Assembly (NCBI GenBank): GCA_032718865.1
Contig: JALUTQ010000040.1
Span: forward strand, 1,364,001 to 1,428,000
Source: Tilletia caries
Lineage: Eukaryota > Basidiomycota > Exobasidiomycetes > Tilletiales > Tilletiaceae
Length of the DNA stretch: 64,000 nt
Direction of reading: 5' to 3'
Below, in pieces: positions 18,371 to 29,586 of this stretch. Made by a program: the position numbers and the translations under genes. The notes beneath the pieces were generated by a model that was not told the origin of the DNA, searched no databases, and saw nothing but the letters and a program-made list of their open reading frames with translations. How positions within the stretch are numbered: the stretch's first letter is position 1; each line of letters begins with the position of its first letter.

Positions 18371-18439
18371 CAGCAACCTGCAAGATGGATGACACTCGAT
18401 AAATTGGGTGTGCACACACTTTAATGTTTGAGACCCGAA
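18371..18439 (+). repeat. Left terminal inverted repeat of the 11.2-kb element
   Basis: Begins CAGCAACCTGCAAGATGG and ends near GAGACCCGAA. It matches the reverse complement of 29518-29586 except at two positions. A related, weaker inverted copy of its inner half lies at about 19070-19103. Confidence 0.9.
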
Positions 18440-18446
18440 AAAAATG

Positions 18447-19043
18447 AGGTTTATCACAGGATGGTACGGTATTTTGCTTTTTATCCCAGGATGGTACGGA
18501 AAGCAAAAATATCACAGGATGGTACACTGGCAAAATTGATTCTCCCAATCTCCTCACTCCCGTCCACGTCCTCACTCCTCAACGTCAAGGATGATACTTA
18601 GTCTCTCAAGATTGTGTAGCATTGGCATCTCCGCAGGCTTATGCCGGGCTGGGTGCCCACCGACGAGAGTTATACCTCGCCTAGGGCCGTCAGAGACGTT
18701 ATAGGCCTTTATTTACGGAATTACACGTCGTACAGTCAGAGTGTTCAATGTCAATATGTACGGCACTCTCCAGTTTGCAATAGCAAGTCCTCAGGCCGAA
18801 TCTACGTCTCTCAGAGGGCGCACGCCGCGCTCTATGAGAGCTGAACTGTCTCTAGAAGATTCCATTCTGAGCGGGGAGAGGGGAGGGAGTCAGTAATTTT
18901 GCATACCTTGAGAGATTCTTTCGGCAGGCAGTGAGTGAGGATAGGCAAAAATAATTTTCACAGCGTACCATCCTGTGATAATTTTGGAGGGCGTACCATC
19001 CTGGGATAAAAATCAACATACCGTACCATCCTGTGATAAACCT
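18447..19043. mobile_element. 597-bp Mutator-type MITE with iterated TIR motif
   Basis: Starts AGGTTTATCACAGG and ends with its complement. Flanking CGAAAAAAATG (18436-18446) and the same word with one extra A (19044-19055) form an 11-12 bp target duplication, the size made by Mutator-like elements. The arms stay alignable for about 100 bp, and each contains the word CAGGATGGTAC three times at roughly 30-bp intervals. No transposase frame is present, so it is non-autonomous. It landed at the inner edge of the left TIR of the 11.2-kb element and is therefore younger. Confidence 0.82.
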
Positions 19044-19149
19044 CGAAAAAAAATGAATCGGGGGAGTCTGAGCGTCTCAAACGTCCCAAGTGTGTGCACA
19101 TTTCATACCTGACGCCGCCTCGCCGACTGCTTGTTCCTCTCCTCCATCA

Positions 19150-19853
19150 ACCACTCTCGCGCTCGCCGCAAATGCTCCTTCGACTCACTCTCGCGCTCGG
19201 ACTCCGCGAATGGTCGCCCTCCGCCGGTCCTACTGTCATCACCTCCTTCAACGCAGACTACCTCGTCGGCGCTATTGACGAGGTCACCAAGAACTACGGC
19301 ATTCCTAAAGCCTCGATTGGTATTATATTGTTGCCTATTGTTGGAAACGCGGCGGAGCACGTAACTGCGGTGAGTTTTCCTCGTTCCTGTTTGCATGTAG
19401 GATGCCCTCCCGAATCTGACATGAAATGGCTTCTTCCCAATTCATTTCTTGTGCGCGCGTGCGTAGGTTGTGATGGGATACAAGGGCAAGATGGAGATCG
19501 CAGTTGCCGTCGCAGTCGGTTCTAGCATTCAAATCGCGTACGTACAGGTTTTTTGCGCGGGCGGAGCATCGAATCTATGCTCGTGTTGCTCACCCTTTCC
19601 GGAGCTTTACTCTTCCTCAGTGTCGGTGTTATTCCCGCTCTCGTCATCGTCAGCTGGGCCATCGGTCAGCCTCTCACGGTGAGCATCCTTCTCGCGTTCC
19701 GCACCTTCGGAGTGAGTATTTTTCCACGGAATCCCAGATCTTTGCCCTTTCTCTGCACTCGGCTGACTGTTTGAATCATTTCTGTGAATCGGAATGCCGT
19801 CGAGCTCATTGTTGCAATTGTTGCCCTGACTCAAGGACAGCTTCGGTGAGTTA
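19150..19853 (+). pseudogene. Scrambled fragments of a CAX-type Ca2+/H+ exchanger gene
   Basis: Spliced segments read YGIPKASIGIILLPIVGNAA with EHVTA, then MGYKGKMEIAVAVAVGSSIQ, then IPALVIVSWAIGQPLT. These are the second exchanger domain of vacuolar VCX1/CAX transporters, with the GNAAEH cation motif. After that comes NAVELIVAIVALTQGQLR (about 19795-19852), the first exchanger domain, which in intact proteins lies far upstream. Domain order is thus reversed and most of the protein is missing. Exon-intron structure is retained (donors GTGAGT and GTACGT), so the fragments were copied from genomic DNA. Their place inside a TIR element suggests capture of a host gene. Confidence 0.7.
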
Positions 19854-19859
19854 TCTGTC

Positions 19860-21910
19860 TCCCCGCTCCAGCACGCGTCGCGATGTAGGCGCGTGCGCTC
19901 ACACAAACATATACACATCTCTCTGACGCGTAAAATCTTCTCCCCCCCTCTTTTTGTACGAGCCTCCCAAACAGGCACCCATACACTACCCCTCCGAAGG
20001 CGAAGTTCACGAGTAGCAAGCGTACCCAACTTCTTAAACGGTGAGTGCACTGATACATGTACTCTCGACTTCTCGTCCGCCTGCCTCCGTGCGGCCCTGC
20101 TGCCTCGTGCGGCCCTGCTGGGCTGTACTCACTACTCGCGACAAGTCAACGTGCCGACAACATCCATTACCTTCCCCTCTCGCTGGTCTATTGTATACGT
20201 TATGTTAGACACCGGAATGGATATGGTCTTTTGCGCTCTTACTTTCTCGGCCGGTAGCTCCCAGCCTGATCCTACCCTCGTTTCAAGCTCGATTTCGAAA
20301 GCTGGGAAATGGAGAATAAATTGTTTCTCAGCTTTACATCGCATTTTTCGTCCATTTCGTTCTCCTCTGAGGATCGAGGATCGAGGATCAGCATTCATCG
20401 TTCTCAGCATTTACTGGGGAGGATCAAGCCCTTTGGCCTTCAGCATGCTCACACAAGGTAGAATTCGTATGGTGACGGCTGGGACCGAGATGATCATGAT
20501 CAAAGTAAAGACGCCCTATATGCCGGTCACCACCGCTTGGTCAACAAAGCAGCACATCACCATGATTGGATAGCAAAGGAAGTGGTTACCAAGCTGGGAC
20601 CAGCTGACAAGCTGATGGTTCCTTTCCTATCCGCCGCCGCAGAAATTTAAGGAGGATAGTTGAGCAAGCTCTCTGCTGTAGCTGACGGCCAATAGGACAC
20701 TGTAATAGGTGAATACTCTCCCTCACTCCCTCCAACTGTCCGTCCTCTCCACGACTACTGATCAAACACCTTTCTTTCAACAGCTTCGCAATCCACATCT
20801 CTTCTCTGCCCTTCCTGTGCTGTGCGCGTGTCGCGAATCGGCGTCTGACGGCCGACAGTGCGTGTGTTTGGACCATACATGGTGAGTAAGCGTCCTAACC
20901 GTGGCTCAGAAATCTTTCAATGTCACTGATTCTGCTTCCCCTATTTCTCTACCTCGAACAGGTCTGCATGCTCGGCTCTCAGGCGCCCAACGTCCTCAGA
21001 CTCGTTCTCGTTCGTGAGTGAGCAGAAGTTGTGGTTTTTGGCCGCATGTAGTCTGTTGTCTGATGTGTCGGCACTGATCAATTCCACACCACTTCCTCCC
21101 GTCTAAACAGTGCGCACACAACGATATCGAAGCTTCAACGTTCAGGGAAATTTTCTATTCAGAGTGCGGATGCTATGAGTGATGACAGACTGATGTCCTT
21201 ACTTTTTTGAGGTTGAGCCATTGAGCAGATTGCATACGTTGTACGCAATATGGTCGACGTTGCCCACGTCCCACACGCGGTACACTCGCACACTCGCATG
21301 GCACTATTGGTGAATGACGGCTCATTTTCTTCCAGATCACAGCATAGCACCATACATGATCCTTTTGCGCGCCGTCTGCATCTGCTACGCTGGCTTCGGC
21401 TGACTGCTTTTCTGATCCTGTTCCCTGCTGATGTCTCCAAATTCCACTTGCGATGTCTTATTCTCTCTCGATGTCTTATTCCCTCAGGGCTTACCAAGCT
21501 CAATCAGGATTCAGGACGCCTACCTAAAGGCCTACGACAGTCGACACGCGCGAATCTCGATGCTGGATTTGAGAGGATGGGAGGACGGGAAGAAGAGGAT
21601 GTGATTGCCTCCTTCTTCCAGCATTGTTGACCATCGTCTCCCACCATCCTCACTTCATCTCTACTCTCTGGCACTGTGCAGGCCAGGGGCGATGATAGCT
21701 CAAAGGGGAGTCATGCATTTGGACTTGCGAGCTGATTTAACATCCGGCATCCCTATCCTTCCCATTAGCCCGCAGCTAGACCTATACATGGCGTCGAGTC
21801 GATCGATTACAATTTACATGCGAGAAAGAGCGGGCGATCGTAGAAGAGAGAAGGTGAAGAGAGATGGAGATTAAGATTCAGAACAAAAGCAAGTGAGCAA
21901 CTGCTTGATG
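19860..21910. other. Non-coding interior of the 11.2-kb element
   Basis: No supported gene on either strand; frames are short and unlike any family I know. It may contain the downstream boundary of a Crypton-like insertion, but I could not place one. Confidence 0.5.
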
Positions 21911-28299: not shown

Positions 28300-28304
28300 A
28301 AATC

Positions 28305-29205
28305 CAAACCTCACGTATTCCTACACAGCATCCTTCACACAGTTGGATCTCCCTCAACTCTGACTCAATCTCTCTCCGGTCTTGTGAGAAAGATGTGTGA
28401 CAGTGTGATAGACTAGGGTGTGCAGTTTGAAGCTCGAGAACAGCGTCGTTTTCGAGTTCTGACCGAATATGTGCGTCGCGCGCAGGGGTACTTCTTACCC
28501 GCCGAATTTGACCTTATCGATCTCGCTCAATTCTTGCTCAATCTCTTTCAAACCTTCACACGCGTGTTTAGGAAGACTGTATCTATCATTTCCGTTGATC
28601 TTAAATAAAAAATGACATAGGTTCCCCCTGTGTCGGACATCATGGTCGTGGTCGGGCAAAGGAAGTGATCAGAGCTGTCCGAGGCTACTAAGTAAGGAAG
28701 ATTGCATTTCTCACAGATGATAGCTATTACAGAAAGATGCTTGAGAGTGTCATTGACTATCGTGTGATGCTGAAGCACAGCGGAGATTGTGATCAAGGTG
28801 AGCGAGGAAAAACAGAATAGGAGTGAGCAATCAGTAACGCAGTGGGCGGTGAGCAGTCAGAACCCAAGGGATTGAAATTGGTGACCCATAGATGTCGAGG
28901 ACGGTGGTGACTGGTGGGTGAAGCGATGGAGCCTTGTCGGGCGTCGAGCGCGTCGAGAGTGCGCAGCTAAAATTTGTTCCATGCGTTCCATGATGTTCCA
29001 CGGAAATGCTCCGAGGTGCGCACCATGGTATCTCCAGGAGAGCGCCCACAACAATCTCCGCATCCTCACCACCTCGACTCGAACGAAGTACCCATCGCCA
29101 TAATCGGATAAGGGCCATTCCTGGGCGGCGTAACAGAGGATTTGGATATCATCCTCGTGTGAAAAATTCAGGCGGTTTGAGGACGAAAATAAAAAGTTTT
29201 TTCTA
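28305..29205. other. Non-coding right part of the 11.2-kb element
   Basis: No gene seen on either strand. Confidence 0.5.
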
Positions 29206-29221
29206 GTGATGTATGTTTTAG

Positions 29222-29387
29222 TGGTACGGCCGTAAGGCTGACCGCCTCCAGAAACCCAACTCTAAAGAGTCTGGGTAATCAGTTTGTATGCATTACGCTC
29301 CACTGTAATGGCCAACTTGCCCGGTGCGACGCATGCACGGGACCACTGCTGGTGGACAGTGGAAACGGGACCTTCCGTGAAGTCCCG
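29222..29387 (+). ncRNA. Candidate structured RNA: six consecutive hairpins
   Basis: Reading by eye, six perfect or near-perfect stems follow one another with short linkers. (1) GTGGT...ACCGC around GGCC-GTAA-GGCT (29222-29244). (2) CCCAACTC-TAAA-GAGTCTGGG (29255-29275). (3) CATTAC...GTAATG (29291-29310). (4) CCCGGTGC...GCACGGG (29320-29341). (5) CCACTG...CAGTGG (29343-29362). (6) CGGGAC...GTCCCG (29366-29387). A T-rich stretch (TTTTATTATATA) follows near 29434. It matches no RNA family I can recall. It could be an RNA gene, or folded single-stranded DNA near the right end of the transposon (TIR starts at 29518). Strand is not proven, since the stems work on both. Confidence 0.4.
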
Positions 29388-29517
29388 CTCGGATCATCTA
29401 GGCGTCCCGCCCTCGTCACCACCTTTTGCCAGATTTTATTATATACACTAGATAGGGATCAAGGGTACAACTGAGAAAAACGTTGGTACTTGGTGCTTGG
29501 TGGGCGACGGAGAAAAG

Positions 29518-29586
29518 TTCGGGTCTCAAACTTTAAAGTGTGTGCACACCCAATTTATCGAGTGTCATCCATTTTGCAGGTTGCTG
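29518..29586 (-). repeat. Right terminal inverted repeat of the 11.2-kb element
   Basis: Ends GCAGGTTGCTG, followed by the TA duplication and then the remaining LTR sequence. Confidence 0.9.

What the first reader, a model, noticed from the sequence alone, without database searches (positions are those of the whole stretch)
18371..29586. 11.2-kb TIR-bounded cargo element with a clean TA insertion into an LTR
Seen: 69-bp inverted ends (CAGCAACCTGCAA...) 11 kb apart. Joining the outer flanks at TA restores the 232-bp LTR whose intact copy is at 33920-34151. This proves one insertion event. Known: TA duplications belong to Tc1/mariner elements, normally 1-5 kb with a DDE transposase. Here no DDE frame is seen. 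Instead there is a tyrosine recombinase gene, exchanger gene fragments, a hairpin array and two nested elements. Inference: either an unusually large Tc1/mariner-type carrier moved in trans, or a TIR-flanked, recombinase-bearing cargo element, analogous to but distinct from ascomycete Starships. I know of no described basidiomycete element with this make-up.
Basis: partly seen in the sequence, partly recalled or inferred. Interest (0 to 1): 0.92.

Follow-up and report, generated by a model that had tools for sequence, protein, structure and literature searches.

The report
Stacked transposons inside one jumping element
The 11-kb element is a small, ordinary cut-and-paste transposon of a bunt fungus that carries scraps of a host ion-exchanger gene and was swollen by other transposons landing inside it, so it is a Russian-doll stack and not a new kind of cargo-carrying giant element.

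Summary
In detail: 69-bp inverted ends (67 of 69 identical), TA on both sides, and joined flanks that match the second LTR at 232 of 232 bases. The novel reading does not. The same ends bound at least eight other complete copies in this genome, 8 of 8 flanked by TA; four of those carry a Tc1/mariner-type DDE transposase. The window copy is a transposase-less deletion derivative of about 1.6 kb without its inserts. The rest is nested: a 599-bp inverted-repeat MITE; a Crypton (20458-29451) whose NDC10_II tyrosine recombinase also occurs outside any TIR element; a Helitron-like element inside the Crypton; a short copia-type element inside that. The closest TIR copy, on C21, has the site without the Crypton. 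The exchanger fragments are two order-swapped, intron-bearing pieces of one host gene: ordinary transduplication. Precedents are in print: MarCry-1_FO (mariner plus Crypton, TA) and Tc1/mariner transduplication in Pyrenophora. Protein matches place the genome in Tilletia. Open: whether the Crypton was already aboard when the element jumped into the LTR, and why it sits exactly at the element's deletion junction.

The parts
18322..34151 (.). Host LTR retrotransposon: LTR1 = 18322-18370 plus 29589-29771, LTR2 = 33920-34151; GTTTT duplication at 18317-18321 and 34152-34156
   Evidence: joined LTR1 against LTR2: 0 of 232 differences
18371..29586 (.). Non-autonomous Tc1/mariner-type element, TA duplication at 18369-18370 and 29587-29588; own sequence 18371-18445 + 19055-20457 + 29452-29586
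18371..18439 (+). Left TIR (CAGCAACCTGCAA...)
29518..29586 (-). Right TIR, 67 of 69 identical to the left
18446..19044 (.). Nested 599-bp MITE with 105-nt imperfect inverted arms (probably the 'hairpin array'); 9-10-bp duplication GAAAAAAAT; Mutator-like by duplication length (inference)
   Evidence: site without the MITE in the C30, C34a, C34b and C21 copies (the pattern used was not found in C34c)
19232..19702 (+). Captured piece A of a host Na_Ca_ex-family exchanger gene (later part of the gene), 460 of 471 identical to C4:1947169-1947639, introns kept
19702..19949 (+). Captured piece B of the same gene (earlier part), 237 of 254 to C4:1946388-1946641; order swapped relative to the gene
20458..29451 (-). 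Nested Crypton; flanks AAG and ATAG; empty site CACACAAG/ATAGGG in the C21 copy; 5,472 bp not counting its own nested insert
21920..25637 (-). Crypton gene in exons: tyrosine recombinase (NDC10_II; exon with the presumed catalytic Tyr 23841 to about 23600) and a C-terminal region that aligns to a GCR1_C-bearing relative in two frames, so probably broken in this copy
25757..29278 (+). Helitron-like element (TC...GGGTAA, inserted between A and T, hairpin next to its 3' end, about 344-bp repeat units), nested in the Crypton
25901..28299 (+). Nested short copia-type LTR element (LTRs 25901-26178 and 28022-28299, 2 of 278 differences; duplication AAATC; ORF 26357-27922 with gag and Pol_BBD)

Best explanation
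A transposase-less internal-deletion derivative of a resident Tc1/mariner-type family, carrying transduplicated pieces of a host exchanger gene, inserted at a TA in an LTR, using transposase supplied in trans by full-length copies of the same family. The bulk of the 11.2 kb is nested insertions: a Mutator-like MITE, and a Crypton that entered at an AG/RTAG target and itself carries a Helitron-like element with a short copia-type element inside. Shown: the TIR family, TA, full-length copies, the nested boundaries, sites without the MITE and without the Crypton in sibling copies, gene capture. Inferred: transposase acting in trans, Crypton integration by way of a circle, the Mutator and Helitron labels, and the order of some events.
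For: TIR family: 24 end matches (a lower bound, as the tool says) forming 9 complete elements, window included, and 2 single ends; 8 of 8 other complete copies and 2 of 2 single ends abut TA; sizes 1.24 (three), 2.78, 5.04, 5.10, 5.36 and 6.14 kb. Transposase: a 304-aa frame with DDE_3 (E 2.8e-14, above cut-off) and helix-turn-helix matches below their cut-offs, present at 98-100% identity in the four 5-6-kb copies and in no other TIR copy; 50 further matches at 27-55% identity lie elsewhere. Nesting: in the C21 sibling, sequence runs from CACACAAG straight into ATAGGGATC, where the window has the Crypton. Four further near-complete Crypton copies (98-99%) and partial or diverged ones lie away from every TIR match. 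Crypton ends GTAG...ACTAG recur. MITE-free sites in C30, C34a, C34b and C21. The Helitron-like element is missing from this position in 4 of 4 other Crypton copies read; C33 has one at another position. Exchanger pieces match one host gene at 98% and 93% with introns.
Against: The Crypton sits within 1 bp of the deletion junction that separates the C21/window lineage from the full-length copies, a coincidence that independent nesting does not explain. Private changes in the window's Crypton (29 of 4,702) against 0 of 232 between the outer LTRs hint that the stack may have jumped as a unit. Transposition in trans was not observed.
Confidence: 0.92

Rival explanations
1. Sub-question of timing, compatible with the best explanation: the Crypton (and perhaps the rest) was already inside the Tc1-type element, and a stack of about 9-11 kb jumped into the LTR as one large carrier, moved in trans by the full-length copies.
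For: Window Crypton has 29 private substitutions in 4,702 aligned sites against 6, 9, 9 and 16 in four other copies, while the two outer LTRs differ at 0 of 232; at equal age about 2.9 LTR differences would be expected, chance of none about 0.06 (my estimate). Divergence from the C21 sibling, 14 of 1,284, is of a similar age.
Against: Private changes may predate the insertion (an unsampled Crypton sublineage); LTRs can be homogenised by conversion; only one copy of the composite was found.
Confidence: 0.4
2. A TIR-flanked, recombinase-bearing cargo element analogous to Starships, in which the tyrosine recombinase moves the 11.2-kb unit.
For: The recombinase gene lies within the TIRs, and only one such unit was found.
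Against: The TIR/TA boundary belongs to a family with a DDE transposase. The recombinase has its own element ends, an empty site within a TIR copy, and copies elsewhere without the TIRs. It is NDC10_II-type; DUF3435 was not reported for it at E up to 1.
Confidence: 0.02
3. A stable mariner-Crypton fusion family like MarCry-1_FO of Fusarium oxysporum, with both enzymes in one transposing unit.
For: Same ingredients: TA duplication, TIRs, Crypton recombinase.
Against: No transposase in the window copy, no other copy with both parts among 9 complete TIR copies, and the Crypton ends are those of the free copies.
Confidence: 0.03
4. Two separate small MITEs with similar ends, or a misassembly, give the appearance of one element.
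For: Small 1.24-kb copies with the same TIRs exist.
Against: Subterminal sequences at the two window ends are those of the two opposite ends of the 5-kb copies, the flanks join to a 232-of-232 LTR, and the ends of the nested elements recur elsewhere in the genome.
Confidence: 0.02

Closest known systems
Tc1/mariner (IS630-Tc1-mariner) superfamily with transduplicated host genes (Pyrenophora tritici-repentis, PMC3538342, passages seen; plant Pack-Mariner, PMC8903248, passages seen)
   Same: TIRs, TA duplication, DDE transposase in sibling copies, pieces of host genes between the TIRs multiplied with the element
   Different: Here a basidiomycete; the same host gene appears to have been sampled twice (93% and 98% pieces, order swapped); full-length copies are 5-6 kb with a second 564-aa frame
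MarCry-1_FO, mariner plus Crypton composite of Fusarium oxysporum (PMC3212892, passages seen)
   Same: A CryptonF recombinase inside a TA-flanked TIR element
   Different: MarCry has four copies over 97% identical, 16-bp TIRs and its own transposase; the window composite is a single copy without transposase and with a separable Crypton
CryptonF elements of fungi (PMC3212892, passages seen)
   Same: Tyrosine recombinase of NDC10_II type, relative with GCR1_C, no evident TIRs, short shared core at the junctions
   Different: Core seen here is AG, followed by RTAG on the target side, not a 4- or 6-bp perfect terminal repeat; tandem 1,072-bp mini-units
Starships (PMC12134995, passages seen)
   Same: A tyrosine recombinase gene on a mobile element of a fungus
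   Different: Recombinase is not DUF3435, no large cargo, TIR and TA belong to another transposon

Membership tests
Tc1/mariner superfamily | TIRs with TA target-site duplication | tested here: met
   window and 8 of 8 other complete copies
Tc1/mariner superfamily | DDE transposase in the full-length copies | tested here: met
   DDE_3 E 2.8e-14 in the four 5-6-kb copies; the third catalytic residue is expected in the next exon (PDFNPIE read; motif recalled)
Tc1/mariner superfamily | transposase in the window copy itself | tested here: not met
   no match better than E 0.44; hence filed as a non-autonomous member
CryptonF | tyrosine recombinase of NDC10_II type | tested here: met
   E 2.6e-7, 30.5 bits against cut-off 26.3; 9 of 9 protein relatives are Tilletia proteins
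CryptonF | GCR1_C DNA-binding domain | tested here: inconclusive
   T. horrida relative P0004 carries PF12550 and PF16787 and its C-terminus aligns to window 22425-21920 in two frames; the window frame 22180-23406 itself gave no Pfam match
CryptonF | no TIRs of its own, short direct repeat at the junctions | tested here: inconclusive
   no inverted pair of 25 nt or more at the Crypton ends (shorter ones not searched); AG at both junctions with empty site AAG/ATAG, only a 2-bp perfect repeat
Starship | DUF3435 captain | tested here: not met
   not among families reported at E up to 1 for the recombinase; three weak matches exist elsewhere in the genome
Starship | large accessory-gene cargo moved by the recombinase | tested here: not met
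   Crypton is about 5.5 kb without inserts
MarCry-type fusion | several copies carrying both parts | tested here: not met
   1 of 9 complete TIR copies holds a Crypton
Helitron (25757-29278) | 5' TC, insertion between A and T, 3' hairpin before CTRR | tested here: inconclusive
   A before TC in the window and in 10 of 11 loci looked at (the pattern was not found in the 11th, L057); T after the 3' end in 8 of 9; hairpin read by eye; end is GTAA or GGAA, not CTRR (features recalled); no Rep-helicase gene was linked to these ends

The most novel reading that the evidence does not exclude
The Crypton recombinase of this fungus recombines loosely at AG/RTAG-like cores and has reshaped other transposons: it made tandem 1,072-bp mini-Cryptons (C1) and the internal deletion of the Tc1-type element whose junction it now occupies, creating a mariner-borne Crypton that then moved as one unit in trans, a MarCry-like composite caught at birth.
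Probability: 0.08. Interest if true: 0.55.

Novelty: new member of a known kind. Interest (0 to 1): 0.25.

Why it matters
It removes a candidate for a basidiomycete Starship analogue and replaces it with a readable nest of six elements. It also gives defined ends, a target core and an empty site for a Crypton family in Tilletia, where tandem copies suggest insertion next to itself, and a basidiomycete case of Tc1/mariner transduplication in which one host gene appears to have been sampled twice.

Tried and rejected
Starship-type carrier: rejected. MarCry-type family: rejected for lack of a second composite. Telomere-directed Cryptons: NDC10_II matches lie near the contig starts of C25, C12, C14 and C26, but the first 500-700 bases of these four hold no TTAGGG or CCCTAA, whereas C1 does (15 CCCTAA in 300 bases); the C3 start read N. 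Recombinase-made deletion: left open; the simplest breakpoint reading (AAGA/TAGGG) does not put an AG core on both parents, and the alternative needs a 7-bp slippage as well. In one search the comparison of three 1,072-bp units counted 300 mismatches for the third; that unit spans 1,076 places for 1,075 query bases, so I take the count as a shift artefact. The first motif count used wrong joins and was redone. The left end of the C13 Crypton copy was not resolved. Paper searches with 'Crypton', 'tyrosine recombinase', 'basidiomycet' and with Starship terms listed 7 and 4 papers; only those cited were opened, and of these only passages were seen.
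Full report
What was checked. The window is a stretch of contig C35 of a 38.1-Mb genome in 40 contigs. All nine relatives of the recombinase returned by protein search are Tilletia proteins (only 7,997 candidates were scored), the one transposase relative is from T. maclaganii, and a second frame of the full-length transposon matches a T. controversa protein at 100% over 59% of the query, so the host is a Tilletia, probably of the wheat-bunt group (inference). 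The inverted ends (67 of 69), the TA on both sides and the restored LTR (0 of 232 differences) are as described. The LTR element has its own GTTTT duplication.

The TIR family. A search of the genome with the left end gave 24 matches, which I resolve into nine complete elements including this one and two single ends (the tool calls such counts lower bounds). The eight other complete copies are 1,236, 1,238, 1,237, 2,782, 5,044, 5,103, 5,355 and 6,143 bp long, and all eight have TA on both sides; both single ends also abut TA. The four copies of 5-6 kb carry a transposase frame with DDE_3 (E 2.8e-14, above cut-off) and helix-turn-helix matches below their cut-offs; it is 98-100% identical among them, with 50 more distant matches (27-55%) elsewhere in the genome. 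A PDFNPIE motif follows in another frame, presumably after an intron. So DDE relatives with the same ends exist. The window has no match to that transposase.

What fills the window copy. Against the other copies, the window's own TIR-element sequence is 18371-18445, 19055-20457 and 29452-29586, about 1.6 kb. The 599 bp at 18446-19044 are a MITE with 105-nt arms and a 9-10-bp duplication; the site without it is seen in the C30, C34a, C34b and C21 copies, while the pattern used was not found in C34c. At 20458 a 9-kb block begins that ends at 29451. In the C21 copy the same place reads CACACAAG directly followed by ATAGGGATC.

The block is a Crypton. Its recombinase exons, joined by eye, match NDC10_II (E 2.6e-7, above cut-off) and, below cut-off, Phage_integrase; DUF3435 was not among the families reported at E up to 1. 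A T. horrida relative carries both NDC10_II and GCR1_C. Its C-terminus aligns to the window in two frames; of the four other copies, three (C1 twice, C13) align in one frame and C33 in two, so the gene is probably broken here. The window's own frame over part of that region gave no Pfam match. The four other near-complete copies, 98-99% identical, lie on C1 (two), C33 and C13, away from all TIR matches. The element starts GTAGAATTC and ends ACTAG. In the right flanks of five copies, bases 3-4 after the end are AG in 5 of 5, and the flank is RTAG in 4 of 5. The left flank ends in AG in 5 of 6 loci; the exception is C21:600497, a 78%-identical relative; junctions inside the tandem are not counted and the C13 left end was not resolved. 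Together with the empty site AAG/ATAG this fits integration of a circle by crossover at an AG core (inference).

Inside the Crypton. The Crypton is interrupted at 25757-29278 by an element beginning TC and ending GGGTAA; 4 of 4 other Crypton copies read lack it there, though C33 has one at another position. The base before TC is A in the window and in 10 of 11 loci looked at (no pattern match in the 11th, L057); the base after the end is T in 8 of 9. A hairpin sits next to the 3' end (by eye), and copies differ in the number of about 344-bp units. I call it Helitron-like, with reservations: the end is not CTRR, and no Rep-helicase gene was linked to it, although Helitron_like_N has 60 matches in the genome. 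Within it lies a 2.4-kb copia-type element with an AAATC duplication and 2 of 278 LTR differences. From the coordinates, gaps of about 280 bp at the same place in the C34 and C22 copies and of 2.4 kb in C33 and C39 suggest that this insertion was inherited by several copies, whereas C17 has no gap; the junction of an LTR with the element is seen directly in C22 and C34.

The exchanger fragments. A host gene at C4:1946250-1947800 has Na_Ca_ex matches; the label Ca2+/H+ exchanger would be my recollection. The window element carries positions 920-1390 of that stretch (460 of 471 identical) followed by positions 139-392 (237 of 254), that is, in swapped order and with introns. The C30 and C34a copies match only the second piece, extended further upstream; the C21 and C36 copies carry both. 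A later second capture from the same gene, replacing part of the first, is the simplest reading (inference). Tc1/mariner transduplication in a fungus is in print for Pyrenophora tritici-repentis (PMC3538342, passages seen), and Pack-Mariner in plants (PMC8903248, passages seen).

Order of events. The LTR element came first and the TIR element entered it. Whether the Crypton was then already aboard is open: the window's Crypton has 29 private changes in 4,702 sites (others 6, 9, 9, 16), the TIR core differs from C21 at 14 of 1,284, and the LTRs at 0 of 232. If the Crypton entered after the LTR insertion and its private changes date it, about 2.9 LTR differences would be expected, so none has a chance of about 0.06 by my estimate; private changes inherited from an unsampled source and LTR conversion weaken this.

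An unexplained coincidence. In full-length copies the left side of the Crypton site reads CACACAAG/ACAGAG, and the right side lies about 3.4 kb away (C34a) at GATAGGGATTAGGGATCAAGG. The C21/window lineage is a deletion joining them as CACACAAG/ATAGGG, and that junction, within 1 bp, is where the Crypton sits. The deleted core holds one AGRTAG match on each strand; the forward one is this junction, and the full-length C34a copy has no forward match and one reverse match. Either the deletion made a target by chance or the recombinase took part.

Comparison with what is known. MarCry-1_FO is a TA-flanked mariner-Crypton composite with its own transposase, judged from four copies (PMC3212892, passages seen); the window composite differs by being single, without transposase and separable. 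Starships are moved by a DUF3435 captain (PMC12134995, passages seen). Two paper searches, for Tilletia with transposable element or Crypton (12 of 235 papers listed) and for Crypton with tandem array, telomere and fungi (4 listed), showed no title reporting these elements; that is the reach of those listings, not proof of absence.

Verdict.

Noticed in passing
G000:C1:1864959-1873468 (L041-L043, L037, L047): Three head-to-tail units of about 1,072 bp, made of the first part of the Crypton, directly precede a full Crypton; each unit ends at an internal AAAG/GCC site and abuts the next GTAGAATTC start. Looks like mini-elements inserted next to one another.
   Followed up: partly
G000:C25:2714-21372 (L082): Another Crypton-type recombinase occurs four times at about 5,970-bp spacing; a 6.9-kb stretch shows a 5,971-bp head-to-tail period at 99.9% over 930 bp. 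Similar spacings on C4, C3 and C12 are read from the match list alone.
   Followed up: partly
window 20458 and 29451; L028, L029: The Crypton sits within 1 bp of the internal deletion junction of the Tc1-type element.
   Followed up: partly
L029:2133-3824 (-): A full-length Tc1/mariner-type copy carries a second, 564-aa frame on the other strand, with two similar 191-bp blocks (about 71% alike) and no Pfam match at E up to 1; both homologues returned are Tilletia proteins.
   Followed up: partly
G000:C36:39393-39923, C40:1429542-1429961, C3:273409-273732: Three weak but above-cut-off DUF3435 matches (best E 1.9e-6) in this basidiomycete genome.
   Followed up: no
G000 as a whole: NDC10_II recombinase matches are very numerous: 121 exon-level matches.
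   Followed up: no
window 18275-18300 and 34154-34179; 18162-18187 and 34305-34330: Short inverted repeats flank the whole LTR element, so it may itself sit inside another inverted-repeat element.
   Followed up: no
L029, L030, L031 (C34 copies), TIRs: The TIR at one end of three full-length copies (in L031 at both ends) is split by a further insert, with a 9-bp overlap at the split.
   Followed up: no
window 9753-13372 and 34454-41180: The nest lies between a xanthine-dehydrogenase-like gene and a VPS8-like gene.
   Followed up: partly
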